Of a DNA stretch of 40,403 bases, positions 5,741-23,235 are shown one piece after another. A program made the position numbers and the translations under genes. A model generated the notes under the pieces. The model had not been told where the DNA came from. It saw only the letters and a program-made list of their open reading frames with translations, and searched no databases. The number at the start of each line of letters is the position of its first letter. The first letter of the stretch is position 1. Location: assembly GCA_013373375.1 (NCBI GenBank), contig JABXHY010000078.1, positions 1-40,403 of the forward strand, read 5' to 3'. The DNA comes from Gammaproteobacteria bacterium. Its GTDB lineage: Bacteria > Pseudomonadota > Gammaproteobacteria > Enterobacterales > Kangiellaceae.

Positions 5741-5829
5741 ATCATTTTTAGCCCGGATATTTTCTACCTAGGTTTTCTCTCTAAATGTGTTGTCTCTCTA
5801 AGCGTTCTCTTTCTAGGTGGTCTTTGTTC

Positions 5830-5874
5830 AGCGATTCTTCATCAAGCGGTTCTTCATCAAGCGATTCTTCGTCC
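5830..5874. repeat. Intergenic 15-bp tandem repeat (3 units)
   Basis: Three near-identical units, consensus AGCGATTCTTCATCA, start at 5830, 5845 and 5860. They lie between the convergent GGDEF gene and the small membrane-protein gene. Confidence 0.8.
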
Positions 5875-5892
5875 CAGTATTCTTGGTGTTAC

Positions 5893-5959
5893 TAGGCTTT
5901 AATTCGATACTAGTCAGGTCTTAACACGATACTAGTCTAGGTCTTAACTCGTCGCTAGC
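5893..5959. repeat. 22/23-bp tandem repeat (3 units) at the 3' end of the 5955 gene
   Basis: Units at 5893-5914, 5915-5936 and 5937-5959 share the pattern of an AGG-TCTTAA half followed by CGATACTAGT. The third is diverged and runs five bases into the minus-strand membrane-protein gene, including its stop codon. Confidence 0.7.
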
Positions 5960-6419
5960 TATAGCGCTTTATTAACTTATCAATCCGACGTTTATTTTGC
6001 TGCTGCAGTAAAGAAGGGTATAAGTTCATCAATATATTGACCAATAGCATAATCAACGCAAATAGAAACTTACCTTTCAACAGTAACACCAAAGAGAATA
6101 CCGCCATAAATAGAAACGCCAGTAAATGCGACAGTTCTGCCTTCGTCATTTCTTTTCGTAAAATGTGTAAGTCGTCAATATCGGCCGTTGAATTTAAGTT
6201 CAGTTTCATATTAAAAAAGCGAAAAAACGTGTTTTTGACCGTCCATTTAAAATAATCCAGGCCCATCCATTTATTCAGCTTTCTACTTTCGATAAAGTTT
6301 AAGTTGTCAAGCGCTTGATAGAATTTTGCTTTTTGTAATAGGGCGTCGAATATCAGCCCGACCACCCATGAAATAAAGACAATGGAAAAGCTGAAGGTAA
6401 AATAATTAAACGTTGTCAC
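5955..6419 (-). CDS. Small integral membrane protein, function unknown
   Basis: 154 aa. It has an N-terminal hydrophobic helix (about residues 5-26), an amphipathic middle with basic and aromatic residues (NKWMGLDYFKWTVKNTFFRF), and two more hydrophobic helices near the C-terminus. It then ends in a segment NLYPSLLQQQNKRRI. That ending resembles the NxYPxLLQxYN pattern I associate with the glycosyl-diaponeurosporenoate acyltransferase-like (CrtO-type) membrane family. The match is by memory and weak. No operon partner is present; it is convergent with the GGDEF gene. Confidence 0.65.
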   Translation of the reverse strand: MTTFNYFTFSFSIVFISWVVGLIFDALLQKAKFYQALDNLNFIESRKLNKWMGLDYFKWTVKNTFFRFFNMKLNLNSTADIDDLHILRKEMTKAELSHLLAFLFMAVFSLVLLLKGKFLFALIMLLVNILMNLYPSLLQQQNKRRIDKLIKRYS

Positions 6420-7026
6420 GGTATTCTACGTCCGTATGAGCGTGTTGCGCTAAATCTGATATTTCAAACAAGTTTGCAATCCAGCACAAGTAAGTTAGTG
6501 AGCGAGAAAGTATCTTATTTAGCAATAAATGGCAAACCACATTTTTGCTTGGCAGAGCGAACCAGATTTTGGGTTTTGGGTTTGAGTTTAAATGGAATGA
6601 TGCACACGCTTAAATAATACATCTATTTGAATGGTTGCCAGTAACCAGTAATCAATACCTAATAACGGTATATTTTTTAAACCATTATCTTGATTTGGCA
6701 CAATATCTAACGTTTTTGTCACTATTTTAATAACCGATTTACACCAGCACGCATACTCTGTTTACACATGTTGAATGGCCGATGAGTGTCGTCGTGATCA
6801 GTGCTGGAGGACTGTGTTAGTGTCCTTTTATCTGTGGTTTTTCCTACGTGTTCATTATTCCGTATCTTTTCATCTGAATAATGATTGGCTAGTAATCAAT
6901 TGGCTTATACGGCTTATCTCATTCGATTATTCAACATGATTGCAGCAATTGGATTGTTTCGGGTTGTTTGTTGCGACTGAAAGGTTGCGACTGACTGATT
7001 GCAACTTAATTGCTGCGAGCTAATTG
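6420..7026. other. Gene-free stretch with 14-bp-spaced TTGCGACT repeats
   Basis: No coding region is supported. TTGCGACT or a one-base variant occurs at 6971, 6985 and 6999, spaced exactly 14 bases, just upstream of the palindrome and the small secreted-protein gene. The rest is AT-rich with no clear structure. Confidence 0.5.
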
Positions 7027-7044
7027 CGCTTCGATATCGAAGCG
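7027..7044. promoter_or_regulatory. 18-bp perfect palindrome, candidate operator
   Basis: CGCTTCGATATCGAAGCG is its own reverse complement over all 18 bases. It ends 30 bases before the ATG at 7075, inside the likely 5' leader or promoter of that gene. A dimeric repressor site is the simplest reading; the binding protein is unknown. Confidence 0.5.
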
Positions 7045-7074
7045 AATAAAACCATAACAATCATGGAGAATAAA

Positions 7075-7512
7075 ATGAACAAGATACTGTTAACCTTATT
7101 AGTCAGCTTTAGCATGAGTGCAATGGCCGGGTCGACGTTGTTACGAAATACGACCAACTATTATCTCAATCACTATGCTTTTCAAGCGGTGTACACCAAT
7201 CCGATACAAGCCAATCAGCCTGTTTATAGCTGGCGAACTCATACGCGATTCGATGGAACACCCGGTATTCACTCGCAAAATGGTGAGCTCATTGGCTACA
7301 CCGATTCGCAGGGCGTTTTTATCTCGGTAGTACCAAGACTTCCTTTTGATCCGGTTCATTGTGGTTGGATTAATCAGGAGCGGGTTGCGGTTGGTTCACC
7401 TTATGCGCGAAAATCTAATGCCATCAGTTATACCATTAAAGCCGGTCGGGTTGGACCACTTCCACCTTGGTATAACGAATGTGTACCTCAAAGCATCAAC
7501 AACGAAAAGTAA
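7075..7512 (+). CDS. Small secreted protein, function unknown
   Basis: 145 aa with a clear signal peptide (MNKILLTLLVSFSMSAMAG, cleavage after AMA). The mature part is rich in Tyr, Asn and Pro and contains two cysteines (HCGWIN and NECVPQ), which could form one disulfide in the periplasm. The start at 7075 is chosen because GGAG lies six bases upstream and the signal peptide begins there; the frame is open further upstream from a TTG at 7024 but that extension is not signal-like. No family is recognised. Confidence 0.8.
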   Translation: MNKILLTLLVSFSMSAMAGSTLLRNTTNYYLNHYAFQAVYTNPIQANQPVYSWRTHTRFDGTPGIHSQNGELIGYTDSQGVFISVVPRLPFDPVHCGWINQERVAVGSPYARKSNAISYTIKAGRVGPLPPWYNECVPQSINNEK

Positions 7513-7544
7513 TCGATCCTTAGTTTTATCGTAAAATGCAAATA

Positions 7545-7732
7545 CTCGGCGGCAGGCTTGTCCGTAAAGCAAGACCTGTCCGCCGAAACGGTTTTTCAAC
7601 TGAGCAAGGTTTGCCCACTGAGAAAGGCTTGTCCGCCGAGATAGTTTTGTCTACTGAGAAAGGCTAGTCCGCCGAGATAGTTTTGTCTACTGAGAAAGAC
7701 TTGTTCGCAGAGATAGGTTTGTCCGCAAAAAT
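7545..7732. repeat. Minisatellite of 18-bp units (36-bp higher-order period)
   Basis: About ten 18-base units of the type CYGAGAWAGGYTTGTCCG. The clearest part is three 36-base doublets at 7617-7652, 7653-7688 and 7689-7724, each an ACTGAGAAAG half plus a GCCGAGATAG half; the first two doublets differ by one base. Earlier units are more diverged. No spacers separate the units and stops or frame changes break any reading frame, so it is neither a CRISPR nor a protein repeat. Confidence 0.85.
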
Positions 7733-8088
7733 TCTTATGCTCCTAATTGAGTTTTCTATTTGGTCTGACAATTTTATTTGATAAACCGGTTTGAAAGGAC
7801 GGTCTTACTGAAAGGTGAAACTGTCTCGTAGACCAACCTTTGATGTCCTGGCTGCAATGTATCAAGTTATAAAAAGTCAGGTCTTTCTTAATGAGCCGAA
7901 GTTCAAAGCCAGGCTTGGCTGATTTGAATGATTTTGATGAATGAAAAATGACCCTTTGTCTTGGATACTTTCGTTTTAACGTCTAATGACTTTTTCGATC
8001 TCACGGCTCATTACTCTTGCAATCACAAGTTGATATAGCCTTGTTACGTTTAACTCATATTGATTTTACCGACCATTGGAGAGCATCT
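7733..8088. other. Gene-free stretch containing dispersed repeat copy R1
   Basis: Between the minisatellite and the CxC protein gene I see no gene. It holds the 66-bp repeat at 7884-7949 and otherwise unremarkable AT-rich DNA. Confidence 0.5.
7884..7949. repeat. Dispersed repeat R1 (copy of 17695-17760)
   Basis: 66 bases identical to 17695-17760 at all but five positions, same orientation, about 9.8 kb apart. It includes the small inverted repeat AGCCA-GGCT-TGGCT. Both copies lie in intergenic DNA. Confidence 0.9.
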
Positions 8089-8631
8089 ATGAGGTTACCT
8101 ATGAAGCTTTCAATCAAATCATTAGTGACAAGAAGTTTAACCTTAACGTTATTGCTATTTGGGTGTATTAAAGCCATGGCCTGTTCATGTGCACCTCAAC
8201 CGGATGATATTAATAAAGCCGTGACAGATGCTTATCAGCGCGCCGATGCGGTTGTATTGGCTGAAGCCATCGAAGTTACCGAACTTACCGGGAGTGATTT
8301 ATACGGCGATTCGTTAATGGCTGACATGTCCGGTGAGGTTGTAAAAGAAAGAACCTTGTTTTCGGAAATAAAATCCTGGAAGGGGATTCATGGTCGACAG
8401 TTTTATACTGAGATTACGGTTGCTTGTTGTATGTGCGGTATTTCGTTTACCAAAGGACAGCAATATTTACTGTACCTCTATCGAAATGAAGATGGCACTT
8501 TTGCTGCGTCTTCTTGTGGTAGAAGTAAGCCTGTCGTAGTGGCAGGAGCAAATACGGTTGCAGAGAATACGGGCGAAGAAAATTTAGCCGAACAAGAGTT
8601 GGCCATTCTCGACAAGCTTATTTTTGAATAG
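8089..8631 (+). CDS. Secreted CxC-start TIMP/NTR-like protein
   Basis: 180 aa. The signal peptide ends at a new N-terminus CSCAP, as in tissue-inhibitor-of-metalloproteinase/netrin-module proteins whose mature chain begins with a Cys-x-Cys wedge. Later features fit the same fold: ADAVVLAEAIEV (first strand), then CCMCGISFTKGQQYLLYLY and SSCGRS near the end, giving paired disulfides. Known eukaryotic members inhibit metalloproteases; bacterial members are uncharacterised, so the function is open. The start at 8089 is set by GGAG seven bases upstream. It is followed by a decayed gene end (8664-8789) and a second protein of the same kind. Confidence 0.78.
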   Translation: MRLPMKLSIKSLVTRSLTLTLLLFGCIKAMACSCAPQPDDINKAVTDAYQRADAVVLAEAIEVTELTGSDLYGDSLMADMSGEVVKERTLFSEIKSWKGIHGRQFYTEITVACCMCGISFTKGQQYLLYLYRNEDGTFAASSCGRSKPVVVAGANTVAENTGEENLAEQELAILDKLIFE

Positions 8632-8663
8632 GTCTTACAATGTGTATTAATAAATGGTTGTAA

Positions 8664-8789
8664 TTAATAAATCGTCTCTATCGGTAAATCAAACGTAGAC
8701 GTAATAAACGTAGCGTCTTCTTTGAGGTCATTATCGATATTGATGTTTTTTTGATAACCCACCAAGTGATTTTCCAAATCATTCACTCA
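8664..8789 (-). pseudogene. Relic 1: 3' end of a gene homologous to 17900-19444
   Basis: Read on the minus strand this encodes a stop-free tail of about 40 residues including GYQKNINI and DLKEDATFI, ending FDLPIETIY. It aligns without gaps to the C-terminus of the intact protein (GYQEDIRI, GLTEDAYFI, ending FDLPIATIY). Upstream of 8789 the reading frame is lost. It is a decayed copy of which only the 3' end survives. Confidence 0.85.
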
Positions 8790-8913
8790 TGAACTTTTTT
8801 AGATTAAACCCGTCTATCAAACTCTCTCGTTTATAACAACGATTGCTGCCATTATAATTGGCAGCAATTAAAATCTTCGCAAATATCTTGTTAGCATCAT
8901 TAGAAGGCTTGTT

Positions 8914-9768
8914 ATGAAATTAAAAGCTCTGTTTTGTTTTTCTTTATTCCTCGCTTGGCAATCGGCATACGCGTGCACCTGTCAGCCAAAACATACCACG
9001 TTAGAAGGAAAGTTTAATAATAGCCGTCATGTTACGTTAGTTCAGGTAATCGACGGACAGGTTACCGAGGGAGAAAACGAAAGAGAGTTTCAGTATCAAT
9101 TAAAACCGCTCGAGTCTTTTAAAGGCGATTGGAATCAAATGCTGCAAACAAAACCAGTAACTGGAATGGACAGTTGCAGTACATTACTGGTAGTTGGCGA
9201 AATATGGCTGGTGTTTCATGATGGATCGGAACTGATCAGTTTTGGTTCCTGTCGACCGCACGTTAGCCTGAATACTCTGGAGCGTTTTCAGCCTTTATGG
9301 CGCTGGAAACTCAACAACATGGACGATTTAGACGCCAAATTAAAAGCTGAAAACAAAAAGAAAGCGAAGCTTATTGATGACATTATGGCATTAAAAAAAG
9401 TTCAGTATTTAATCGCTGAGTATAATCGAGGCTTGATTTCGAAAATTATTAATTCAGTGGGTACCGTCGCTCAAAAAGATTTGGAATCCGATGTCTCTTA
9501 TAAAAGTTTACGAAAAATTACTGAGATGTACTTGAGTAAAATACCTGGCGACAGGTTGCTGGGCGAACATGTCGCCACACGATATCTTAAACAGCGTTAC
9601 ACCTCCGATGACTTAGCTCAACTGCTTGAACTGGCGAATACGCCAATAGGTGAAAAGATTTTATTGGATCTTGCCGTCATTGTTGCTGAAAATGACCAAT
9701 CGCTCGATCCACACTTGTTGTACGCTAATGTTTTTCGGCCCAAACTAGCGGATACCGAACAGCCGTGA
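8914..9768 (+). CDS. Secreted CxC-start TIMP/NTR-like protein with helical C-terminal extension
   Basis: 284 aa. The signal peptide (MKLKALFCFSLFLAWQSAYA) is followed directly by CTCQPKHTT, the Cys-x-Cys start of the same TIMP/NTR-like family as 8089-8631. Further family-type features are DSCSTLLVVGEIWLVF and FGSCRPH within the first 130 residues. From about residue 140 a charged helical extension follows (DDLDAKLKAENKKKAKL and on), absent from the other paralogue. The start is supported by AAGG upstream. A terminator follows at 9799. The role is unknown; possibly a periplasmic or surface protease inhibitor. Confidence 0.78.
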   Translation: MKLKALFCFSLFLAWQSAYACTCQPKHTTLEGKFNNSRHVTLVQVIDGQVTEGENEREFQYQLKPLESFKGDWNQMLQTKPVTGMDSCSTLLVVGEIWLVFHDGSELISFGSCRPHVSLNTLERFQPLWRWKLNNMDDLDAKLKAENKKKAKLIDDIMALKKVQYLIAEYNRGLISKIINSVGTVAQKDLESDVSYKSLRKITEMYLSKIPGDRLLGEHVATRYLKQRYTSDDLAQLLELANTPIGEKILLDLAVIVAENDQSLDPHLLYANVFRPKLADTEQP

Positions 9769-9850: not shown

Positions 9851-10024
9851 TTAATAAATCGTCGCTATGGGGAGATCAAAAGCAAACGCGATGAAAGCGG
9901 CGTCTTCTTTGAGCCCATTTTCAATTATAATATCTTTTTGATAACTCTCTAATATTGAAAACGGACGACTTGAGGTCGACCAACTGATAAAAACACCAGG
10001 CACTTTAATGCTCAAACCAACTCA
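9851..10024 (-). pseudogene. Relic 2: 3' end of a gene homologous to 17900-19444
   Basis: The minus strand encodes a tail of about 56 residues containing VFISWSTSSRPFS, YQKDIIIENGLKEDAAFI and FDLPIATIY. It matches the intact C-terminus (VFISWSFASKPLS, YQEDIRIENGLTEDAYFI, FDLPIATIY) without gaps. A stop interrupts it at 10022-10024. It keeps the downstream terminator hairpin of the family (9799-9823). It sits directly beyond the 3' end of the ABC exporter gene. Confidence 0.9.
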
Positions 10025-10050: not shown

Positions 10051-12210
10051 CTAACATGCTATGGCCTCGGGGACAGGCACTGATTTTCTAGCCTTTCGCA
10101 ACTCAATAATTTTACCCTGCGTTACTCTAAAAATTCGATCTGCGCTTAATATGGTTTCTTTTCTATGAGCAATAATAACTCGGGTCATATTAAGGTTTTT
10201 AACACACGTGTTGACTTTGTTTTCTAGCTTAATATCCAAGTGCGATGTGGCTTCGTCCAGAAATAATATTTTGGGTTTTTTATAAAGTGCTCGTGCTAAT
10301 ATAATTCTTTGTTTCTGCCCGCCAGATAATGTGCTGCCCATATCACCTATTAATGTGTTGTAGTTCATTGGCATCGCCATAATATCGTCGTGCACTGACG
10401 CCATTCTAGCGCATCGTTCGATTTCTTTTTGATCATACTCTGGCGCGAAAAAGCAAATATTATCGGCAATTGATCCTGACAAGAGTTGATCGTTCTGCAT
10501 TACTGCGGCAATTTGACCTCGATAATTTTGAGAGCCCAATTTATTGATGTTGATGCCGTCAATCATCACTTGTCCATTGTCGGCCTCGATAAGTCCTAGC
10601 ATTATTTTCATCAATGTACTTTTTCCGCAACCTGATGCACCCACGATGGCTACCGATTCGCCAGCATTGATTCGAATTGACGCATTGTTAAACAGCAATG
10701 GTTCATCCGCAGCGTATCGAAAGCTAATATTGTCCAGTCTCAGAGAACCTTTTAAGTTCCCAGTATGAATAAAAGGATTGCTTTCTTGGTCAAAATCTTT
10801 TTCGGTCGGGGTTAACGCAATATCCCCAATGCGCGTCAAGTGTAAACTTAACATTCGAAATTGAATGAACTTGTCGATTAGCGAAATAGCTTTCATTGTG
10901 AACTGTTGCTTATAGGCAATAAAAGCGAACAACATACCAACAGTCATAATTCCTGCGATAATATTGGTAGCTGCCAGGTAAATCACAATGATATTTTCAA
11001 TGCCAAATAATAGTTTATTAGCGGATGTAAAACCAATATTAAGTTTCTCAAGTTTAATGCCGGTATTCATTGTGTCGGCGTATAAATTTTGCCATACAGT
11101 TTGCCGTTCAACTTCTTTTCGATATAGCTTAATGGTTTGACTCGCACGTACCGTTTCCATAAAGTTGGAATCTTCTTTTGCATTGGCGACAATGTTTTCT
11201 TCATTAAAGTTTTTAAACGGCTTAAAAAGAATCATCCTTATTAGACAGTAGATTAACGCGGTTGCAACAACTAGCCAGGCGAGTGTAGGGCTGTAAATAT
11301 ACATCATGACCAATGTACCAATAATCATAACGCCATCGACAAGAGCCTCGATTGTACCAGTGGTTAAAAGCTCTTTTACACTGTCAAGCGATCCAAAACG
11401 GGACACTATGTCACCAATGTGCCGTTTTTCAAACCAGCCTTGTGGTAGTCTTAGCAAATGTCGAAATAAGTTGTTGGCAATTTGAAAGTTCATCTGTGTA
11501 CCCATAATAAGGATCACTAACGAACGCAACGCGGTAACGCAAACCTGGAAAAGCATAATGAGCAAAAATCCAATCGCAAGAATGAGCATTAGGTCTACGT
11601 CTTGGCTAACCACTACGTCGTCTATGGCAAGTTGCACATAAAAAGGGGTTACAATAATGAACACTTGCATTAGCAATGATAATACAAGCACCTGCAGCAA
11701 ACTGCGCTTCAATCCGGTTATTTTATTCCAAAGCTCTGATAGTTTAAGTTTATTCACTTCATCTTTTTTGATGAATTTCTTTGTTGCCGTTAGTTCGAGT
11801 GCGATTCCCGTGAAGTGCTTAGAAAATTCTTGCACACTAAAAACCCTTTCGCCAACCGCTGGGTCAATAATCGTGACTTTGTTGCGAGATACTTTTTTTA
11901 ACACAACAAAGTGATTCATATCCCAATGAAGTACGCACGGAGTCTTGAGATCTTTCAGATGATCCAGGTCGACTTTTAAAGGCCGTGACGCCATATGCAG
12001 TTTGTCGGCGGTTGCGATCAAGCATTGCAAAGTTGCGCCTTTTAACGAAATAGGGTACTGGCGTCGTAAAGTATTAAGATCAATTTTGTGTCCATAGTAA
12101 TTGGCAATCATGGCAATGCAGGCAAGCCCGCACTCCGCTGCTTCAGTTTGCAAAATCGGTTTTACCGAATTAAAACCAGCAAATTCGAGTAAATGAACGG
12201 GATTATTCAT
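10051..12210 (-). CDS. Peptidase-containing ABC exporter (C39 bacteriocin/microcin type)
   Basis: 719 aa, full length for a PCAT/lactococcin-type exporter. It cleaves double-glycine leaders and exports the peptide across the inner membrane. The N-terminal C39 protease has oxyanion Q21, catalytic C27 (TEAAECGLAC), H100 (DMNHFVVL) and D116 (IIDP), so it should be active. Six membrane helices lie between about 165 and 435. The ATPase has Walker A GASGCGKST (524-532), signature LSGGQ (628-632), Walker B ILFLDE (648-653) and H-loop H682. The start overlaps the stop of the HlyD gene by four bases, showing an operon. The likely cargo is the two GA-leader peptides at 16526-16946; an outer-membrane TolC partner is not encoded here. 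Confidence 0.95.
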   Translation of the reverse strand: MNNPVHLLEFAGFNSVKPILQTEAAECGLACIAMIANYYGHKIDLNTLRRQYPISLKGATLQCLIATADKLHMASRPLKVDLDHLKDLKTPCVLHWDMNHFVVLKKVSRNKVTIIDPAVGERVFSVQEFSKHFTGIALELTATKKFIKKDEVNKLKLSELWNKITGLKRSLLQVLVLSLLMQVFIIVTPFYVQLAIDDVVVSQDVDLMLILAIGFLLIMLFQVCVTALRSLVILIMGTQMNFQIANNLFRHLLRLPQGWFEKRHIGDIVSRFGSLDSVKELLTTGTIEALVDGVMIIGTLVMMYIYSPTLAWLVVATALIYCLIRMILFKPFKNFNEENIVANAKEDSNFMETVRASQTIKLYRKEVERQTVWQNLYADTMNTGIKLEKLNIGFTSANKLLFGIENIIVIYLAATNIIAGIMTVGMLFAFIAYKQQFTMKAISLIDKFIQFRMLSLHLTRIGDIALTPTEKDFDQESNPFIHTGNLKGSLRLDNISFRYAADEPLLFNNASIRINAGESVAIVGASGCGKSTLMKIMLGLIEADNGQVMIDGININKLGSQNYRGQIAAVMQNDQLLSGSIADNICFFAPEYDQKEIERCARMASVHDDIMAMPMNYNTLIGDMGSTLSGGQKQRIILARALYKKPKILFLDEATSHLDIKLENKVNTCVKNLNMTRVIIAHRKETILSADRIFRVTQGKIIELRKARKSVPVPEAIAC

Positions 12211-13457
12211 TGGGTAATTCCTTTTAAGCGGTACAGTGGTTCAAATAGCCACTGACTAAGTGAGCGTTCTTCTAGTACGATGTCGGCTTTTAGCAGCATT
12301 CCGGCTTGTAACGAAAATTCTTTTCCAAGTGCGTTAATAAATTGACTTTTTAAATCGACCGTAACTCGATACACCGGTTCATCCAATGGTATGGGAACCG
12401 GAAGTTCGGTGGGCGAAAGTATGACCTGGGTAATGTCGGCAATGCGACCTTCGTGCACGCCGTAGTGTTGGTATGGAAATGCATCGTAGCGCAACAACAC
12501 TTTTTGTCCTTTTGCAACAAATCCAATCGCTCGTGTTGGCAGGAACAGATCCGCTCTTAACACCGAGTCTTCGGGTAATATAGCGGCTAATGGTGTTCGT
12601 GTATCTAGCGTTTGACCTCGAAAAGCTTGTAATGCTGTCAACTGACCGTCTAATGGTGCTTTGATAGTGTATTCACGTCGACCAGAGACCTCGACCAATC
12701 GTTGATCGATTTCTGAAATAGTACGCGACAGATCCAATTTTCGGTTGAGCCATTCGTGCGGAATCTTTTTTATTTGCTCTGAAAGTTCGGCTAACTGATT
12801 TCTGAGTTGAATTTCTCGTTGTAAAGTACTCTCCAAGGTCACTTGTAATGCTAGCTTAGCTCGCTTCCCCTCGGTTAATTTTACATCCGATATATAACCT
12901 TTTTTGCGTAACGTTTGTAAGTTCTTGAGCTCGTCATTGGCCAGCTTCAGTTGGCTCTGCTGCAGCTCGATTCCTTTGGCTAATTGTTTGATTTCAGTAT
13001 TTAGCCGAATGATTTGATTGTTTAAATGAGACTCTTTCAATTGAGTCAGCTGTTCCTCATTGTTGAGTTTTAAGGTTAAGCTTTCCTTTTGCTGCTTTAG
13101 TTCATCAATCAGCAAGGCGTCACTATCGTTACCATCCTTATTACTTTTAAGGGTTTTAACCGAAAATAGCACATCGTCTTTTTTAACCAGTTTTCCTTCT
13201 GCGACATAGTCTTCGTAAAGTTCACCTTGGGTTGGTGCGTATAATTTCACTAATCCTTTGTCGGGTACAATATAGCCATTCACCGACACTCTGCGAGCAT
13301 AAGAGCCATATATTAGAAGAATGATCGCAATCAGAGTAATTAAGAAAATAGAAAAAGTGAGGACATAAAATGACAGCGGCTGAGACAATATAACCTCACC
13401 AAAGCTTTTTTCTTGATTGTGTTCTATTGCTTCTTTGCGAAACAAACCAGTGGTCAT
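12207..13457 (-). CDS. HlyD-family membrane fusion protein
   Basis: 416 aa periplasmic adaptor linking the ABC exporter to an outer-membrane channel. It has a short cytoplasmic N-terminus, one membrane helix (about 31-52), a lipoyl half-motif near VNGYIVPDKGLVKLYAPTQG, a long coiled coil (about 118-245), the returning lipoyl half (YTIKAPLDGQLTAL) and beta-barrel domains. AAGGAAAA lies just before the ATG. It is coupled to the exporter by a four-base overlap and follows the Cys-cluster gene after 64 bases. Confidence 0.93.
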   Translation of the reverse strand: MTTGLFRKEAIEHNQEKSFGEVILSQPLSFYVLTFSIFLITLIAIILLIYGSYARRVSVNGYIVPDKGLVKLYAPTQGELYEDYVAEGKLVKKDDVLFSVKTLKSNKDGNDSDALLIDELKQQKESLTLKLNNEEQLTQLKESHLNNQIIRLNTEIKQLAKGIELQQSQLKLANDELKNLQTLRKKGYISDVKLTEGKRAKLALQVTLESTLQREIQLRNQLAELSEQIKKIPHEWLNRKLDLSRTISEIDQRLVEVSGRREYTIKAPLDGQLTALQAFRGQTLDTRTPLAAILPEDSVLRADLFLPTRAIGFVAKGQKVLLRYDAFPYQHYGVHEGRIADITQVILSPTELPVPIPLDEPVYRVTVDLKSQFINALGKEFSLQAGMLLKADIVLEERSLSQWLFEPLYRLKGITQ

Positions 13458-13521
13458 TTCTATTTTCCTTTGTCTTTATGTCCTAAAGTGAAAAGAGCAG
13501 GTTAGCAGTCGCCCAATAAAA

Positions 13522-14589
13522 TTAACGGGCAGCAACCAATGTTTGATTGCGGTAAAGTGCAACTATTAGCTGCTGGCTTAACACCATTCCTTTCTCAATT
13601 TTAATCCGATTGCAGACGTCTTCGTTTGAGGATTTTCCGTCAAAAAACTGAATAACATCATGTAAAGTGTTACTGAATTCGTAGGTGCCTTGTTGGGTGT
13701 AAGCCTTGCATTTGTTGTCTGCTAACTGAATAAGCTGCATATCAGGGTTTGGCTGTAACACTTGAGGTACTTTTGGCATTGAAAGTAGCGTGAAGTTGTT
13801 AAGCATGGTATTAAATTTTTCATGGAGTTTGTCACTGCGCAGCCTGGTAAAGTCTTCTGCGGTTAATTGCCGAACTAACTCATAACACTTTATATAAAAC
13901 GCTTCTTCGTTACCCTCAAAGTCACCCCATAACGACTGATAAATATCCGTTGGATGAGGTTTGTTATCTAGGTCTAGGCCAGTCAACTGTTTCATCTGAG
14001 TGTCATTTTTGTACTGCTGGTTAATGAAGCTTTTATTCATGTTCAATTGATGAAGCGCATATTGCGAAAGAGTGGTTTCTACTGTGTTCAAATGTTCTTT
14101 AAATGACTTCCAAAAGTTACTACCGTCAATGCCAGCCTCATTGACACAAAAATAGCTAATGCAAGTGGCTTCATTATAGCGCCAACGGCTGCATTCTTGA
14201 GTTTCAGGGTTCAGGTAAGGGCATATCATCGACTCAGAACGGCCAAAAAAACTGTCCGTATGATCGTATAAAAATTTATATTTTCTCGGTGGCATTAAAC
14301 CGACAGGACTAACACCAAGGCGACTTTTTATGGAGTCGCGAATAACTTGTCGGGCAAAGTCAAGTTCTTGTCGTGAGTCTGTTAAGATTGCCCCAACCAA
14401 ATAATTGGGTGTGGTTGGATAATAGGTACAGCATTTACTTTTTGTCGAATAGCGCACTTCTTCGGTCGGTTTGGTTTTAATGCAGTCATGGCAATTGGCC
14501 ACTTTTTCTGACGGTGCGGGTGTCTCAAAAAAGTCCGGTAAAAAATTTTGATATAAGTCGGGAATTAGATTAAATAATGTGCGTTTCAT
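13522..14589 (-). CDS. Eight-cysteine YkgJ-like cluster protein of the peptide-export operon
   Basis: 355 aa, predicted soluble and cytoplasmic (no signal peptide or membrane helix). Cysteines are C33, C36, C53, C54, C123, C133, C143 and C148, arranged CxxC ... CC ... C ... C ... C....C. This resembles YkgJ-type metal or Fe-S cluster proteins. The segment CCTYYPTTPNYLVGAI looks like one I associate with large uncharacterised Cys-cluster proteins. The last 55 residues (IQFFDGKSSNEDVCNRI ...) have the spacing of a PqqD-like or other small winged-helix domain, which might bind a leader peptide; this is only a pattern impression. Its start overlaps the CPBP stop (ATGA). The role is unknown, but its place between precursors and exporter suggests maturation or self-protection. 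Confidence 0.8.
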   Translation of the reverse strand: MKRTLFNLIPDLYQNFLPDFFETPAPSEKVANCHDCIKTKPTEEVRYSTKSKCCTYYPTTPNYLVGAILTDSRQELDFARQVIRDSIKSRLGVSPVGLMPPRKYKFLYDHTDSFFGRSESMICPYLNPETQECSRWRYNEATCISYFCVNEAGIDGSNFWKSFKEHLNTVETTLSQYALHQLNMNKSFINQQYKNDTQMKQLTGLDLDNKPHPTDIYQSLWGDFEGNEEAFYIKCYELVRQLTAEDFTRLRSDKLHEKFNTMLNNFTLLSMPKVPQVLQPNPDMQLIQLADNKCKAYTQQGTYEFSNTLHDVIQFFDGKSSNEDVCNRIKIEKGMVLSQQLIVALYRNQTLVAAR

Positions 14590-15410
14590 GATTGTTCCGT
14601 TTTTATATTTTGCAAGCCAAATAACGATTGCTTATGGTTAAACGTTGTCAGTGCGTAAGCTGCGACGACTGTGGTGAGTATCGCGCATGCACTATTGATG
14701 AATGTAATTATTAAGTCGTGAGTGGTTTGTGTTGAAACGACCAGGGTTTCCAGTACAACACCAGGCGTAAGCAATACAAATAAATTAATAAATGCGTGCA
14801 AACCAATGCATAACCAAATATTTCGAAACTTAATGTAAACGTAAGAGAGGAAAATGCCTCCAACAAACGACATGAAAAATCCGTCGATGCCGTGGAAAAT
14901 GCCGAATATTAGAGCGCTAATAATAATGGCGACGTTCGCTCGATAACGTGTAACCATATAGCCGAGCAGTACCACTCGATAAACAACCTCTTCCACCAAT
15001 GGTGCGATGGTTACTTTGGTGATAAACAACACGTCAAGTTGCTCATTTAAATTTTTTGATGCCAATTGCTTTAATTCATCTATGGCAGGCTGGTTCGATT
15101 GATTCAATAAGTCGTTATAAGCAAAGTAGATAACCGCCGAGCCGTACTTGTACAAGGCGATCAATATCATTAATCCGATAACGGTATTCAGTCTAACCGG
15201 ATCGTTATTGCGAATTAGCAGGTTTTTTAGCGGAACAGTATTGGGGTAGCACAGTAAATTTACTAAGCCCAAAAACAGTACCAGAACACCCAAAAGTGAA
15301 ACGGGGTAGAGCAGGGGGGTATCGTAAACTTCAAACAACAATGACTGCGCCAATTTAGCAATAAGATAAGCAACCATTATTCGTGTGAGTGTTAGTTTTC
15401 CATCAAACAT
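14586..15410 (-). CDS. CPBP-family intramembrane metalloprotease
   Basis: 274 aa, about seven to eight membrane helices. It has the CPBP (Abi/CAAX-like) motifs in order: E140-E141-V-V-Y-R145, F169-x3-H173 and H205-x3-N209. These form the metal site of intramembrane glutamic/metallo proteases. In bacteriocin loci CPBP proteins serve as immunity proteins or trim peptides; here immunity is the leading guess. GGAGAG lies upstream of the ATG, and the stop overlaps the next gene by four bases. The exporter already has a C39 protease for leader removal, so this enzyme is probably not needed for that step. Confidence 0.9.
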   Translation of the reverse strand: MFDGKLTLTRIMVAYLIAKLAQSLLFEVYDTPLLYPVSLLGVLVLFLGLVNLLCYPNTVPLKNLLIRNNDPVRLNTVIGLMILIALYKYGSAVIYFAYNDLLNQSNQPAIDELKQLASKNLNEQLDVLFITKVTIAPLVEEVVYRVVLLGYMVTRYRANVAIIISALIFGIFHGIDGFFMSFVGGIFLSYVYIKFRNIWLCIGLHAFINLFVLLTPGVVLETLVVSTQTTHDLIITFINSACAILTTVVAAYALTTFNHKQSLFGLQNIKTEQS

Positions 15411-15427
15411 GTTGGTTTACTCTCCAA

Positions 15428-16438
15428 TCACTCGGTTGCAATATTAAGAATTAGGGAAAACAGCATTCTAATTTTTGCTGGTCCATACATTAGTGGAGCT
15501 AAGCTGGAATAGCTGTTCTTATTGAATATCAGACCAAAAGGCATGCCTTGAGCGTTGATATTTTTAAAAAGTGTTTTGTTCTCGTCGTGTATAACAATGG
15601 CGGATTTTGACGGCGGTATTGCTTTATTTGAAACGATGGCGACCGTCAATTTGTCTTGAAACGCATCGGCGAAATTCAGTAAATCGGGAACTAAGGCAGC
15701 GCAGTGTTTACAATCGGATGATACGTTGACCAATAACAATGGCTTATCACTTTTTATGACGTTTGCCATGGTCAAGGTTTCATCTTTTGCTTGCCCTAGG
15801 TAAGTTGTTTCTTCTAATGTCGTTAAAGTTTGTGCTGAATTATTCTGGCTCGACGGGTTAGTTTTTGAAGTGTTTGTCGATGCAGAATGCGTCGAGACTT
15901 GTGATCCTGCAGTTGACGCTTCAGTTAAATTCTGTGTTGATTTTGCTTCCGTACGAAGATTTATAAATCGAAAACTAAAGGCGATTGAAATAATAAACGC
16001 CAAAGATAAAACCGTTTTATTCAAAGGCACGCTAGAATTGTTTAATAGCGCAATGAGCATAAATATTGCGCAGAATAGGGTGATGCTCTTTAGTATATTC
16101 GATGAGTGATGTTCCTCGACACCGGCAAATTCAAAGCAGTCACAACGAGTTTTTAAGGCAAACTCTAAGTACAATCCGTACAGTGCTACGACTATCATTG
16201 TACCGACGACAATGACTTTAGTGGGTATCGTTTCCGTAGTAATTAAAAGTATGGCGCCGAGAATTTCAATAATGGCGTAAGGTAAACTTTTCGCGAACCT
16301 CATCAGCCACTTATTCAGCAGGTTTGAGTTAGAAGTATCAATACCTTCAGGTTGACGGATGATCTTATAAGCCCCCGACAGTAAAAAAGTGCAAAATAAA
16401 AACAGTGCGCTTAGGTTGTACAAAAACTCAGTCATCAT
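15428..16438 (-). CDS. MauE/DoxX-like membrane protein fused to thioredoxin-like domain
   Basis: 336 aa. The N-terminal half has about four to five membrane helices and the C99-x-C101-F motif typical of MauE-like quinone/thiol proteins. A Ser/Thr/Asn-rich linker (about 165-215) follows, then a thioredoxin-like domain with active site C243-K-H-C246 in LLLVNVSSDCKHCAALVP. The arrangement suggests electron transfer across the membrane to make or reshuffle disulfides in the periplasm, probably in the C-x5-C ends of the two peptides encoded just upstream. GGGGAG precedes the start; two ATGs (16438, 16435) are adjacent and the second is as good. Confidence 0.85.
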   Translation of the reverse strand: MMTEFLYNLSALFLFCTFLLSGAYKIIRQPEGIDTSNSNLLNKWLMRFAKSLPYAIIEILGAILLITTETIPTKVIVVGTMIVVALYGLYLEFALKTRCDCFEFAGVEEHHSSNILKSITLFCAIFMLIALLNNSSVPLNKTVLSLAFIISIAFSFRFINLRTEAKSTQNLTEASTAGSQVSTHSASTNTSKTNPSSQNNSAQTLTTLEETTYLGQAKDETLTMANVIKSDKPLLLVNVSSDCKHCAALVPDLLNFADAFQDKLTVAIVSNKAIPPSKSAIVIHDENKTLFKNINAQGMPFGLIFNKNSYSSLAPLMYGPAKIRMLFSLILNIATE

Positions 16439-16525
16439 GTCTCTCCCCTGAAAATTTTTTCCTTGTTTGAAAAGCCAGAAAGTCAGGCGATCGTTGGTGA
16501 GTTGCCCGAGCTTCTGTGCAGCGTT

Positions 16526-16702
16526 TTAGCAATTACCCGTTGCCGCACACGCAGCATCGACAATCGCCCCAACGATTTCCTCGTGAAGCTCTCTTATATC
16601 TTTTTCACTAGGCATTTCCCAAATGCTGCCAGCGCCGCTAACGGATGAGATTTCTTCTAAAGCAAGATCTCTAAAGCCGTTTTGATTTAGTTCGTTATTC
16701 AT
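16526..16702 (-). CDS. Precursor peptide B with double-glycine-type (GA) leader
   Basis: 58 aa. Leader MNNELNQNGFRDLALEEISS then VSGA fits the C39-protease consensus: L at -12, E at -8, I at -7, V at -4, G at -2, A at -1. Predicted core of 34 residues starts GSIWEMPSEK and ends EEIVGAIVDAACAATGNC, with a C-x5-C terminus and net charge about -5. AAGGAATA lies upstream of the ATG at 16702; a TTG two codons earlier is ignored. It is a close paralogue of peptide A and the first gene after it. It is probably a bacteriocin or signalling peptide exported by the 10051-13457 machinery. Confidence 0.85.
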   Translation of the reverse strand: MNNELNQNGFRDLALEEISSVSGAGSIWEMPSEKDIRELHEEIVGAIVDAACAATGNC

Positions 16703-16730
16703 AACCAATATTCCTTATTCAATAAAAAGC

Positions 16731-16765
16731 AGAAATCAGGCGGTGGTATGCCCGCCTGAGTTTCT
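16731..16765 (-). terminator. Hairpin between the two precursor genes (attenuator/processing site)
   Basis: TCAGGCGG (16736-16743) pairs perfectly with CCGCCTGA (16752-16759). Flanking AGAAA/TTTCT adds five more pairs across one bulged base. On the minus strand a T-rich stretch follows. It could let more transcript cover peptide A than the rest, or stabilise the 3' end of the first message. A decayed version of the same arrangement follows peptide B near 16468-16508. Confidence 0.7.
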
Positions 16766-16775
16766 GAGTTGGGTC

Positions 16776-16946
16776 TTAGCAGTCGCCAGTTGCGTTACAT
16801 GCAGCGTCAACAACAGCTTCAACGATCTCGCCGTGGATTTTCTTGATATCAACCCATGCGTCCCAGATTACGCCAGCGCCGCTTACAGATGAGATTTCTT
16901 CTACAGAAAGTTCTTGAAGGCCGTTTTGATTTAGTTCGTTATTCAT
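16776..16946 (-). CDS. Precursor peptide A with double-glycine-type (GA) leader
   Basis: 56 aa, a short gene easily missed by length cut-offs. The leader MNNELNQNGLQELSVEEISS followed by VSGA matches the LSxxELxxIxGG consensus. The predicted core (32 residues) starts GVIWDAWVDIKKIHGE and ends EAVVDAACNATGDC: two Trp, net charge about -4, C-x5-C terminus. It is first in the operon, with AAAAGGAATA before the ATG and a good promoter 70-100 bases upstream. It shares most leader residues and the C-terminal third with peptide B; the N-terminal core differs. Acidic cores are unusual for pore-forming class II bacteriocins. Confidence 0.85.
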   Translation of the reverse strand: MNNELNQNGLQELSVEEISSVSGAGVIWDAWVDIKKIHGEIVEAVVDAACNATGDC

Positions 16947-16991
16947 AACAAATATTCCTTTTAAAAAAGTTTAAAATTTAAGTTTAAGTTT

Positions 16992-17007
16992 GCTTTCGTC
17001 TGAAAGC
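16992..17007 (-). promoter_or_regulatory. 5'-terminal stem-loop of the precursor mRNA
   Basis: On the minus strand GCTTTC-AGAC-GAAAGC begins about eight bases after the -10 box, so the transcript is predicted to start with a 6-bp hairpin. Such 5' hairpins are known to protect messages from decay (ompA type); the same role here is inferred. The rest of the leader to the ATG is about 45 bases and AT-rich. Confidence 0.5.
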
Positions 17008-17014
17008 GGAGTGA

Positions 17015-17043
17015 ATGTTATCGACACAATTTTTTTTCGTCAA
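17015..17043 (-). promoter_or_regulatory. Sigma-70-type promoter of the peptide-export operon
   Basis: Minus strand TTGACG (17043-17038), 17-base spacer, TAACAT (17020-17015). Five of six and four of six consensus bases with ideal spacing. The predicted start is near 17008. No other strong promoter was noticed between here and 10051, so the seven genes may form one unit. Confidence 0.65.
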
Positions 17044-17899: not shown

Positions 17900-19444
17900 T
17901 TAATAAATCGTGGCGATAGGCAAATCAAACGCGACAGAAATAAAGTATGCATCTTCTGTTAAGCCATTTTCGATTCGAATATCTTCTTGATATCCAGCCA
18001 TAAGCGACAGAGGCTTACTGGCAAATGACCATGAAATAAACACACTCGGTGACAATATGTCTTCAATCTTTGGATCATAGGCATCACCTTTCAGCTCAGC
18101 CGTTATATAGTTACCTAAATCGATAGGTGCATAACCAAGTGTCAATGAACTTCCTCGGTAATTGAGCAATTTAAACTCAACGCCCACAGGTCCGTAGGCG
18201 CGCGTCATAACATCTTTATTATCACCGCCTGTTTCATCAATCTTCATAAATGAAAGGCCATAATAAGAGGTTAAGAAAAGCGTATCTTGGCAAGGCAACA
18301 CGTCATACGCGGTACACATGGTGAAGTAAAACTTGTCTTCGCTCGACTTTGTGTAACTTTCTTTTTTACGAACCCAACCGAAATAAGAGGTATTCAATCG
18401 CTTACTGTTGTAGGTATCGTTTTCATTCACGTACTGATCGAGTATGGCGACAACGGCATCGGCGCTGCCGCGTTCTTTATCGGAGGCATCGGCAAGTTCT
18501 GCCAAAAATAACGAAATACTTTTAAGGCGATTAAGTGCGGATATGTTGTACCCTTCAAAATCGAATAAATCCGCTGAAGCACTGCCTATCAAATCAATTA
18601 TCTGCAGCATTTCGTAGGCTTTAAAAACGTAACTCTCATCGGACTCAACTACGAGGCTCATGCTCAATTCGACTTGTTTAATAAGACTCAATAATTCTTT
18701 GATTAATTGTATGTTCTTAGCAAATTGGTCTTTGGTTTCCTGGCTAAGTGAATCAAGTATGCTTTTGTTATTGTTAATATCGATTGCGCTGACTTTATTT
18801 ATGCTTTTAACCATTCTGTCGGTCATTGCTTTACGAGTGGTCAACGAACGGTTGTTGTCACCATTTGAATTAGTTGTGGAGCCAGCGCTTGAAGACCCAG
18901 AGCCGGTAGAACCGGATTTATTATCCCCACCTGAATAATCATCACATTTACGATCTTCCAAAAATGCAACAGTGGTCATACTTTCATTGTTATCATCAAC
19001 CAACTCCTTAACATCTTTTATAAGTGTATCTAATTGGTCAACACGGCTTTGAGTTAGATCGTCAATGGTTTCAATTCTTATTATTTCTTCGAGCTGAGTT
19101 TTTAAACAGAGTGTCACTTTGTCGAATAACAAAATGTCGGTTTTAAATTGCGACTGTATTAGCGGGATTAAACGTTGACCAGACACCGAGTCGTAAAAAT
19201 CGATAGAGCGAACGGTTTGAGTGAAAAACTTTTGAATATAGGCTTGGCGAGCAATATCGTCTATGGCTTGGTCGACAATCACTCGTTCAATTCGGTTGGC
19301 CTGCCATTGGGTGAAGCCCCGAATTAAATTTGTCGCCGATGTTGGAATACTTTCAATTGCGTCTTGCGAGTGTGCAGAAACAGAAATAAACGAAAGGGTG
19401 AACATTAAAAGGCTGGTCAATACGGCTCCAAGCAATGATTTCAT
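17900..19444 (-). CDS. Secreted protein with probable outer-membrane beta-barrel C-terminus
   Basis: 514 aa. The signal peptide is about residues 1-26 (ends SVSAHSQ). Residues 30-330 are largely helical and charged, with a Gly/Ser/Asn-rich low-complexity patch (SGSTGSGSSSAGS) near 175-190. The last 150 residues show alternating aromatic strands (FYFTMCTAYDVL, SSLTLGYAPIDLG, PSVFISWSFASKPLS, DAYFISVAFDLP) and end in Tyr, as outer-membrane barrel proteins do. Two cysteines in that part (TMCTAYDVLPCQ) may pair. AAGGAAC lies before the ATG. Two relics of the same family (8664-8789, 9851-10024) lie beyond the peptide cluster. The function is unknown; an outer-membrane partner or receptor of the peptide system is possible. 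Confidence 0.82.
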   Translation of the reverse strand: MKSLLGAVLTSLLMFTLSFISVSAHSQDAIESIPTSATNLIRGFTQWQANRIERVIVDQAIDDIARQAYIQKFFTQTVRSIDFYDSVSGQRLIPLIQSQFKTDILLFDKVTLCLKTQLEEIIRIETIDDLTQSRVDQLDTLIKDVKELVDDNNESMTTVAFLEDRKCDDYSGGDNKSGSTGSGSSSAGSTTNSNGDNNRSLTTRKAMTDRMVKSINKVSAIDINNNKSILDSLSQETKDQFAKNIQLIKELLSLIKQVELSMSLVVESDESYVFKAYEMLQIIDLIGSASADLFDFEGYNISALNRLKSISLFLAELADASDKERGSADAVVAILDQYVNENDTYNSKRLNTSYFGWVRKKESYTKSSEDKFYFTMCTAYDVLPCQDTLFLTSYYGLSFMKIDETGGDNKDVMTRAYGPVGVEFKLLNYRGSSLTLGYAPIDLGNYITAELKGDAYDPKIEDILSPSVFISWSFASKPLSLMAGYQEDIRIENGLTEDAYFISVAFDLPIATIY

Positions 19445-20311: not shown

Positions 20312-21991
20312 ATGGCGAAAAAAACAGCAAACAAAAATGCCTCCTCAGTTAATGAGTCTCAAACACCTCAAGAGAATGGTCAAGCGATTAGCGAATCGGT
20401 CAAACAAGATGTAATTAACAAAGCCTTATGGAATGCCTGCGATACCTTTCGCGGGACGATTAGTGCCGATACTTATCGCGATTACATTTTGACCATGTTG
20501 TTTGTTAAGTACATTTCAGATGTTTGGCAAGATCATTACGACGAGTACAAAAAAGAACATGGCGACGAGCCGGAGTTGATTACCGAGTTAATGAAAAGCG
20601 AGCGGTTTGTGTTGCCGCCCAAGTCGAGTTTTTATTATTTGTATGAACGGCGGCATGAGCCGGGTAATGGCGAGCGGATCGATCAAGCACTGCACGCGAT
20701 AGAAGAGGCCAATGGCACCAAGTTAAAAGAAGCCGGTAAAAGTGTGTTCCAGGACATCAGTTTTAATACCGACAAACTCGGTGAAGAAAAACAAAAGAAT
20801 GTCATCTTGCGTCATTTATTGGAAGACTTTGCCAAACCGGAACTGAATTTAAAACCCAGCCGTGTTGGCACTCAAGATGTTATCGGTAACTCTTACGAAT
20901 TCTTAATTGGTATGTTTGCCGCGCAAGGTGGTAAAAAAGCCGGTGAGTTTTATACGCCGCCGGAAGTGTCTGATTTAATCGCTGAACTGCTCGACCCGCA
21001 ACCGGGCGAAAGCATTTGCGACCCAGCCTGTGGTTCTGCGTCGTTATTAATGAAGTGTGGCGCCAAAGTCCGTAAAAATCATAACAGCAAAGAGTACGCG
21101 CTCTACGGGCAAGAGGCGATTGGTTCCACCTGGTCGTTTGCCAAAATGAATATGTTTTTGCACGGCGAAGACAATCATAAAATCGAGTGGGGCGATACCA
21201 TTCGTAATCCTAAGTTGTTGGATAAAAACGGTAACTTACAACATTTCGATATTGTAACGGCGAATCCACCATTCTCGCTCGACAAATGGGGCCACGACGA
21301 AGCCGAGCACGATCCCTTCGGTCGCTTTAAGCGCGGTGTACCGCCGAAAACCAAAGGCGATTATGCGTTTATATTGCATATGATCGAAACGCTCAAAAAC
21401 AAAACCGGGCGAATGGGTGTGGTGGTACCGCACGGTGTGTTATTTCGTGGTTCATCTGAGGGTAAAATTCGCCAGCAGTTAATTGATGAAAATTTATTAG
21501 ATGCCGTTATCGGTCTGCCAGAAAAACTGTTTTACGGCACCGGTATTCCTGCGGCGATTTTATTGTTTAATAAAGCCAAAAAAGACGACACAGTATTATT
21601 CATTGATGCCTCGCGCGAATTTAAATCGGGTAAAAATCAAAATTATTTATTAGCCGATAACATTGCCAAAATTTATTCGACTTATCGGCGAGTGCGTTAT
21701 AAAGCCGAACTAGAAGTCGAAATGACTTCGCCAGTGTGTTACGCGCCAGAGTTTGAAGAGCAGGGTACAGGCGTGGTGGTTGATAAATACGCTTATTTGG
21801 CCGAGCTTAAAGAAATTAAAGAGAACGACTATAACCTCAATATTCCGCGTTATGTTGATACTTTCGAAGAGGAAGAAGAAATCGATTTAATGGCCGTGCG
21901 TGCCGAGCGGATGAAGTTGAAGGCAGAGTTGGATGAATTAGAAGGAGAAATGGCGAAGTATTTGGAGGAGTTGGGTTATGGAGAACAGTAA
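20312..21991 (+). CDS. hsdM: Type I restriction-modification DNA methyltransferase subunit
   Basis: 559 aa, N6-adenine methyltransferase subunit. It has the N-terminal HsdM helical domain (ALWNACDTFRGTISADTYRD), SAM-binding motif DPACGSASLL, and catalytic NPPF (IVTANPPFSLDKWG). A Glu-rich C-terminal coiled coil contacts HsdS. It overlaps hsdS by 14 bases. With HsdS it methylates the recognition site; with HsdR it restricts unmethylated DNA. It starts the operon that continues to the metallopeptidase at 29311. Confidence 0.96.
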   Translation: MAKKTANKNASSVNESQTPQENGQAISESVKQDVINKALWNACDTFRGTISADTYRDYILTMLFVKYISDVWQDHYDEYKKEHGDEPELITELMKSERFVLPPKSSFYYLYERRHEPGNGERIDQALHAIEEANGTKLKEAGKSVFQDISFNTDKLGEEKQKNVILRHLLEDFAKPELNLKPSRVGTQDVIGNSYEFLIGMFAAQGGKKAGEFYTPPEVSDLIAELLDPQPGESICDPACGSASLLMKCGAKVRKNHNSKEYALYGQEAIGSTWSFAKMNMFLHGEDNHKIEWGDTIRNPKLLDKNGNLQHFDIVTANPPFSLDKWGHDEAEHDPFGRFKRGVPPKTKGDYAFILHMIETLKNKTGRMGVVVPHGVLFRGSSEGKIRQQLIDENLLDAVIGLPEKLFYGTGIPAAILLFNKAKKDDTVLFIDASREFKSGKNQNYLLADNIAKIYSTYRRVRYKAELEVEMTSPVCYAPEFEEQGTGVVVDKYAYLAELKEIKENDYNLNIPRYVDTFEEEEEIDLMAVRAERMKLKAELDELEGEMAKYLEELGYGEQ

Positions 21992-23222: not shown

Positions 23223-23235
23223 GGAGAATTCAATA

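What the first reader, a model, noticed from the sequence alone, without database searches (positions are those of the whole stretch)
10051..17043. Candidate new acidic peptide (bacteriocin or signal) system with dedicated redox, protease and Cys-cluster genes
Two precursors with GA-type leaders head an operon that ends in an active-looking C39 ABC exporter and an HlyD adaptor. The predicted cores are acidic (about -4 and -5) and end in a shared C-x5-C, unlike the cationic class II bacteriocins I know. The genes between (MauE-thioredoxin, CPBP, eight-Cys protein) do not match a standard lanthipeptide, lasso or sactipeptide set.
Basis: partly seen in the sequence, partly recalled or inferred. 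Interest (0 to 1): 0.85.

Follow-up and report, generated by a model that had tools for sequence, protein, structure and literature searches.

The report
Exported-peptide operon with unclassified Cys-cluster protein
A bacterial operon makes two small acidic peptides for export, along with redox and protease genes and a cysteine-rich protein of an unclassified family whose relatives sit inside lasso-peptide and lanthipeptide gene clusters elsewhere, so it may be an unrecognised helper or tailoring factor for such peptides.

Summary
On the minus strand, 10051-16946, two tandem precursors (68% identical, GA-type leaders, cores of charge -4 and -5, shared C-x5-C end) precede MauE-thioredoxin, CPBP, a Cys-cluster protein (CysP), HlyD and an intact C39 exporter. 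The precursors and MauE-Trx had no convincing relative in 368 other genomes of the class, so nothing comparative supports the peptides themselves.

The new result is CysP. It reaches no Pfam or NCBIfam cut-off, yet one scan found 30 related loci, 24 of them in Myxococcota, Bacteroidota and Acidobacteriota. Eight cysteines are invariant in 28 of 28 aligned proteins; 11 of 28 (not the window's own) weakly match PF03692 (CxxCxxCC). Its C-terminal domain is predicted as a winged helix whose best solved matches are RiPP leader-recognition (RRE) domains, but with weak E-values and no sequence support. Seven of 38 loci checked, window excluded, lie in lasso-type or class I lanthipeptide clusters; the other 31 showed none of the markers.

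Best reading: a RiPP-type exported-peptide cluster in which CysP binds the leader and handles or modifies the precursor, MauE-Trx forms the C-x5-C disulfide, and CPBP gives immunity or processing. Leader binding, modification and bioactivity are inferred.

The parts
16776..16946 (-). precursor peptide 1, 56 aa, leader ending SGA, 32-aa core, net -4, C-x5-C
16736..16759 (-). terminator-like hairpin between the two precursor genes (8 pairs, T-rich tail); possible attenuator
   Evidence: 2 overlapping hits here, against a shuffled mean of 0.9 (sd 0.9) for the region; consensus match only
16526..16702 (-). precursor peptide 2, 58 aa, leader ending SGA, 34-aa core, net -5, C-x5-C
15428..16438 (-). 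MauE-like membrane part (CDC) fused to a thioredoxin-like domain (CKHC), 336 aa; putative disulfide-forming relay
14586..15410 (-). CPBP (Rce1-like) intramembrane protease with its motifs intact, 274 aa; putative immunity or processing protein
13522..14589 (-). CysP: eight-Cys cluster protein of an unclassified family, 355 aa; its start overlaps the CPBP stop by 4 bases
13525..13788 (-). C-terminal domain of CysP, predicted RRE-like winged helix
   Evidence: not supported by profile-profile comparison
12207..13457 (-). HlyD-type periplasmic adaptor, 416 aa
10051..12210 (-). C39 peptidase-containing ABC exporter, 719 aa, motifs intact

Best explanation
The operon is a RiPP-type exported-peptide cluster. 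Two paralogous precursors are recognised through their leader, plausibly by the RRE-like domain of CysP, whose eight-cysteine (probably metal- or Fe-S-binding) N-terminal part either modifies or holds the precursor in the cytoplasm. The C39 domain of the exporter cuts after the SGA of the leader and the peptide leaves through the ABC exporter and HlyD. MauE-Trx then closes the C-x5-C disulfide on the periplasmic side. CPBP provides self-immunity or a further membrane cut. Shown: the genes, their order, intact catalytic motifs, the CysP family with eight invariant Cys, its occurrence inside lasso-type and lanthipeptide clusters, and the predicted fold of the C-terminal domain. Inferred: leader binding, the nature of any modification, the disulfide, immunity, and an antimicrobial or competitive role.
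For: Gene content, gaps and motifs. CysP family: 30 loci from one scan, eight Cys invariant in 28 of 28, 11 of 28 members weakly match PF03692 with best E 0.0014. AF2 models pLDDT 86.6 for the whole protein and 92.3 for the C-terminal 88 residues. Foldseek of that domain: ranks 1-8, 10 and 12 are RiPP proteins (TruD, other heterocyclases, PbtF RRE, TigE, PqqD); ranks 9 and 11 are a YcfD-like hydroxylase. CysP relatives lie in lasso-type operons L018, L021, L022, L023, probably L060 and L069, and in the class I lanthipeptide cluster L020: 7 of 38 loci. In 4 of 19 genomes scanned a lasso-B2-type gene (PF13471) matches within 0.6 kb of CysP though each of those genomes has only 1 or 2 (distances from the coordinates). 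MauE genes occur in candidate RiPP families of another study (PMC7794033, passages only).
Against: 31 of the 38 CysP loci checked showed none of the RiPP markers used, including all 17 myxobacterial loci, so the family also has a life outside such clusters, or the markers miss its partners. hhalign of the C-terminal domain with lasso PqqD proteins gives probability 1.6%. No Foldseek hit reaches E 0.001, and the RRE paper reports about 75% false positives in its manual check of a Foldseek-collected set (PMC12710340 section 5). The window's own CysP does not match PF03692. No enzyme of a known RiPP class is in the operon. No relative of the precursors was found, so core conservation rests on two paralogues.
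Confidence: 0.5

Rival explanations
1. A two-peptide class II type bacteriocin, unmodified apart from a disulfide. CysP is only a redox, metal-handling or folding accessory and its winged helix does not read the leader.
For: Tandem small peptides, C39 exporter plus HlyD, CPBP (a frequent immunity protein of class II bacteriocins, recalled), MauE-Trx for the disulfide. 31 of 38 CysP loci without RiPP markers.
Against: CysP relatives sit next to lasso and lanthipeptide precursors and enzymes; RRE-like fold prediction.
Confidence: 0.28
2. The peptides are signals (a secreted autoinducer system) rather than antimicrobials.
For: Acidic cores, CPBP proteases process signal peptides in some systems (recalled), small operon without an obvious separate immunity gene.
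Against: I saw no sensor kinase or regulator between 9500 and 17600 in the frames listed; two peptides with differing cores.
Confidence: 0.12
3. The C-terminal winged helix of CysP is a nucleic-acid-binding or generic domain and CysP is a regulator or iron/zinc sensor that is only fortuitously placed in peptide clusters.
For: Winged helices are common; no sequence support for RRE; weak Foldseek E-values; family members away from RiPP markers.
Against: Repeated placement between precursor and maturation genes in lasso-type operons of four Bacteroidota and in a lanthipeptide cluster of another phylum; at least two changes of the RiPP label are forced by starred branches of the tree.
Confidence: 0.1

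Closest known systems
Lasso-peptide operons of Bacteroidota (Runella, Arundinibacter, Rhabdobacter loci L018, L021-L023)
   Same: A CysP relative lies in the operon, beside PqqD and B2 proteins and, in L018 and L023, a lasso-like precursor
   Different: The window has no cyclase, PqqD or B2 gene in the operon; its peptides have GA-type leaders and a C39 exporter
Class I lanthipeptide cluster of Acidobacteria (L020)
   Same: Order C39-ABC, CysP, LANC_like, precursor, LanB, second small peptide, HlyD; C39 exporter plus HlyD plus CysP are shared with the window
   Different: The window has no LanB or LanC
PF03692 CxxCxxCC (putative zinc- or iron-chelating domain, YkgJ type)
   Same: 11 of 28 family members match at E up to 0.1, best 0.0014; CxxC and CC arrangement of cysteines
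   Different: The window's own protein does not match; no cut-off is stated as reached; an extra C-terminal winged-helix domain
RRE domain proteins (PqqD, TruD, PbtF, RRE-Finder set)
   Same: Predicted fold of the C-terminal domain
   Different: No sequence-profile support; leader binding not tested. The main text of PMC12710340 does not contain PF03692, 'chelating' or 'cysteine'; its supplement was not seen
Class II bacteriocins / microcins with double-glycine leaders (recalled)
   Same: GA leader, C39 exporter, HlyD, small peptides, CPBP
   Different: Acidic cores, CysP and MauE-Trx genes; leader matches to Mersacidin (16.8 of 27.6 bits) and type-A lantibiotic (13.6 of 21.7) are below cut-off
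MauE-containing candidate RiPP families of decRiPPter (PMC7794033, passages only)
   Same: MauE next to small precursors; a disulfide role was speculated there for MauE of methylamine dehydrogenase
   Different: Those come from Streptomyces (heading of a section listed there); here MauE is fused to a thioredoxin-like domain

Membership tests
Class II (unmodified) bacteriocin | Small precursor with double-glycine-type leader | tested here: met
   SGA at residues 22-24 in both precursors
Class II (unmodified) bacteriocin | C39 exporter in the same operon | tested here: met
Class II (unmodified) bacteriocin | Match to a known bacteriocin family | tested here: not met
   No family over cut-off in Pfam or NCBIfam; PHROGs gives one family of unknown function for precursor 1 at E 0.00038
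Class II (unmodified) bacteriocin | Antimicrobial activity, no modification beyond disulfide | not testable with these tools
   needs expression and mass spectrometry
Lanthipeptide | LanB/LanC, LanM or other lanthionine synthetase in the cluster | tested here: not met
   none of the seven operon proteins matches; the rest of the genome was not searched for them
Lasso peptide | Asn-synthetase-like cyclase, PqqD/B1 and B2 protease | tested here: not met
   absent from the operon proteins; present beside CysP relatives
RRE-containing protein (CysP) | Three-stranded sheet followed by three helices | tested here: met
   predicted strands 10-13, 18-22, 26-31, 34-39 then helices 40-46, 55-66, 72-80, pLDDT 92.3: an extra strand; top solved matches are RRE proteins
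RRE-containing protein (CysP) | Sequence-profile relation to PqqD | tested here: not met
   hhalign probability 1.6%, E 0.032; no member of 28 matches PF05402 in the list
RRE-containing protein (CysP) | Binds the leader of a neighbouring precursor | not testable with these tools
   needs a binding assay
CxxCxxCC (PF03692) | Match to the family model | tested here: inconclusive
   11 of 28 relatives weakly, best E 0.0014; not the window's protein

The most novel reading that the evidence does not exclude
CysP is a RiPP maturation factor of an undescribed kind: an eight-cysteine metal- or Fe-S-binding domain with its own leader-recognition domain, recruited independently into lasso-type, class I lanthipeptide and this C39-exported two-peptide pathway, where it installs a modification or performs a protective step not known for these peptides; the window is then a founding example of a RiPP class defined by it.
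Probability: 0.3. Interest if true: 0.82.

Novelty: new variant of a known kind. Interest (0 to 1): 0.58.

Why it matters
If CysP is a leader-guided Cys-cluster protein shared across unrelated RiPP classes, it is a new class-independent marker for finding peptide clusters and a candidate for new chemistry. It would also give a first testable role to a branch of the CxxCxxCC-like proteins. The small size of the window's operon, with two short precursors, makes it convenient for testing this by expression and mass spectrometry.

Tried and rejected
Tried without result: CysP and MauE-Trx by tblastn against plasmids, no match; precursor 1 against plasmids, no match at E 1; operon DNA against plasmids, 93 records with matches at 60-80% identity, none covering 80% of the query; the 20 listed lay in the exporter part; CysP, the CysP alignment and the precursor alignment in viral contigs, no relative; CysP against PDB sequences, none, and as a profile only a superantigen fragment (E 0.03) and Sec71 (E 0.4), taken as chance. 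Promoter scan: 2 sites against a shuffled mean of 2.4, so no evidence. The match of precursor 2 to a radical-SAM family (E 0.075), of CysP to LptF_LptG (E 0.04) and the E 0.009 precursor hit inside a 346-aa frame were set aside as chance. The one MauE-Trx hit elsewhere (G371, 27% over residues 179-305 with a stop inside) covers only the thioredoxin side.

Considered and rejected: calling the window a lasso peptide or lanthipeptide cluster (defining enzymes absent from the operon); calling CysP a proven RRE protein (negative, fold evidence only); treating L024, L029 and L030 as full proteins (frames broken or run-on), so they are not in alignment A2. L034 (257 aa, cut) is in A2 and the model alignment but was left out of A3 and of the tree. 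L051 (second copy in G476, 3.3 kb contig) was not checked for context. Small conserved frames near myxobacterial CysP genes: in L015 against L006-L008 hits came only from L007 and I took the strongest as antisense to a longer gene; L008 gave none. The myxobacterial 'stand-alone' label is therefore only a lack of the markers used.

Literature: searched open PMC papers. 'YkgJ family cysteine cluster' with 'bacteriocin', 'YkgJ' with 'RiPP' and 'CxxCxxCC' with 'lasso peptide' gave 0 papers each. Supplements could not be searched. PMC12710340: abstract, sections 5 and 6 and passages; PMC7470986, PMC9576775 and PMC7794033: passages only; all others: listing only.
Full report
Observation. The precursors are 68% identical, have AAGGA ribosome-binding sites, cores of 32 and 34 aa with charges -4 and -5 (His not counted) and C-x5-C ends. 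Between them the codons show 2 synonymous and 5 non-synonymous changes in the leader and 9 and 13 in the core, so the reading frames are kept while the cores diverge; this is two paralogues only. Domain matches are as expected for C39-ABC, HlyD and CPBP; MauE sits exactly at its cut-off and the thioredoxin part is below cut-off but has CKHC.

How unusual it is. The precursor profile found only the window's own pair among 369 genomes of the class, apart from one E 0.009 hit inside a longer frame. MauE-Trx found only itself and one partial thioredoxin-side hit (G371) among 369. CysP was found only in the window's genome among 99 relatives, in it and one other (G310) of 369 in the class, and only in it among 309 of the phylum with the profile. 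So the operon as a whole is rare in what was sampled. This also means that no comparative evidence backs the peptides themselves.

CysP family. A scan of one genome per species with a two-sequence alignment gave 30 loci: 17 Myxococcota, 4 Bacteroidota, 3 Acidobacteria, 3 Pseudomonadota, and one each of an unnamed bacterium, Bdellovibrionales and Gemmatimonadetes by record title. Only close matches to two short motifs are found by that method, so this is a lower bound. In the 28-sequence alignment C33, C36, C53, C54, C123, C133, C143 and C148 are invariant. No family reached a cut-off for the window's protein in Pfam or NCBIfam; across the 28 members 11 match PF03692 weakly, best E 0.0014, the window's not among the listed, and NCBIfam shows nothing credible. 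The profile finds further copies in 4 of 194 genomes of the order of Rhabdobacter, two of these being seeds, and in 5 of 247 genomes of the phylum of the L020 acidobacterium, one being the seed.

Fold. The AF2 model of the whole protein has mean pLDDT 86.6, but 49-72 around the first four cysteines, so the presumed metal site is not resolved. Foldseek with the whole model has no hit at E 0.001 or better; false-looking methyltransferase matches lead the list, but RiPP heterocyclases (probability 0.85-0.99), TigE (0.97) and PqqD (0.41) are present with about 74-85 aligned columns. The last 88 residues modelled alone have pLDDT 92.3 and the order of four strands and three helices. Their best solved matches are TruD, other heterocyclases, the RRE domain of PbtF, TigE and PqqD, with a YcfD-like hydroxylase at ranks 9 and 11 (E 0.006 to 0.2, TM by query 0.48-0.67 over the first 12 rows). 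That heterocyclase and TigE hits fall in their RRE domains is my recollection. The RRE paper mentions RRE-like folds fused to JmjC (PF08007) proteins (PMC12710340 section 6); that YcfD belongs there is recalled. Against this, profile comparison with the lasso PqqD proteins gives 1.6% probability, and that paper found about 75% false positives when 100 proteins from a Foldseek-collected set were inspected (section 5). I therefore call the domain RRE-like by predicted fold.

Genomic context. Marker proteins from L018, L020 and L022 and the window's genes were compared with all 30 loci: 5 of 30 (L018, L020, L021, L022, L023) hold lasso-type or lanthipeptide genes. Among 8 further loci (L056, L060, L061, L067, L068, L069, L070, L071), 2 do (L060, L069). 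Several contigs end close to CysP, so 7 is a minimum. L035 has a HlyD hit and L056 an ABC-ATPase hit that I did not count. In L018 the order is cyclase 5758-7722, lasso-like peptide 7815-7964, CysP 7977-9041, PqqD 9058-9339, B2 9314-9748, then HPr-kinase-like and nucleotidyltransferase genes. B2 proteins are over the NCBIfam cut-off (83.1 and 63.7 against 33); the cyclase (461 of 525), PqqD (60.6 and 71.2 of 80) and precursors (19.8 and 23.8 of 33) match lasso models below theirs. L021 shows no cyclase in the stretch held, and in L022 it lies 6 kb away. In L020 a C39-ABC with cNMP domains is followed by CysP, LANC_like, a peptide over the class I lanthipeptide leader cut-off (23.7 against 22), LanB, a second peptide below cut-off and HlyD. 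In 4 of 19 genomes a PF13471 match lies 42 to 589 bases from the CysP match, and in a fifth (G835) 3.8 kb away; those four genomes hold 1, 2, 1 and 2 such matches, G835 six, one of them below cut-off. By my own rough estimate such closeness has a chance of well under 1% per genome of 6-8 Mb.

Tree. In a 34-row tree the eight RiPP-linked rows need 4 changes of the label; starred branches force 2, and none of 500 shuffles was as low. The window's protein is a long branch with 34% highest identity (to L008) and no supported sister, and the program warns that it meets another long branch, so its place is unsure. The five Bacteroidota lasso-linked rows form a starred group.

Mechanism. The C39 cut after SGA and export by ABC plus HlyD follow from the family (established knowledge). 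A disulfide by MauE-Trx is inferred; PMC7794033 reports MauE in candidate RiPP families and cites a speculated disulfide role (passages). CPBP as immunity or processing is recalled family knowledge. CysP as a leader-bound maturation factor is the weakest and most interesting step. The lasso-like precursors next to CysP in L018 and L023 have no cysteine, so CysP is unlikely to act only on substrate thiols.

Verdict. An ordinary-looking export operon with an unusual helper protein that links it to RiPP clusters of other classes. New variant of a known kind; a new maturation factor is possible and directly testable.

Noticed in passing
L072 (own genome, contig C70:80000-98000), 3999-10586: A second C39 exporter with HlyD lies near a radical-SAM-like gene and two small frames with double-glycine-type leaders, one ending in Cys; a different peptide cluster in the same genome.
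   Followed up: partly
window 20312-28552: Type I restriction-modification genes (hsdM-, hsdS- and hsdR-like by eye) about 3.4 kb beyond the precursor end of the operon, with other small genes between them.
   Followed up: no
window 17900-19444, 9851-10015 and 8664-8786 (minus strand): The end of the 514-aa protein at 17900-19444 (…FDLPIATIY) is echoed by short frames ending FDLPIATIY at 9851-10015 and FDLPIETIY at 8664-8786, on either side of the operon: possible remnants of a duplicated gene.
   Followed up: no
window 8017-8631 and 8914-9768: Two secreted Cys-containing proteins in tandem with similar N-termini (…ACSCAPQ / …ACTCQPK), next to the exporter end of the operon.
   Followed up: no
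L069 9605-10417 (minus strand): Between the cyclase and CysP lie a small frame with a YxxP-type leader and CEC motif and a secreted protein with CFCSCG.
   Followed up: no
G473:C122:5266-6237 (L052, L056): A second CysP copy in that genome lies within a 1256-aa open frame; fusion or chance run-on not resolved.
   Followed up: no
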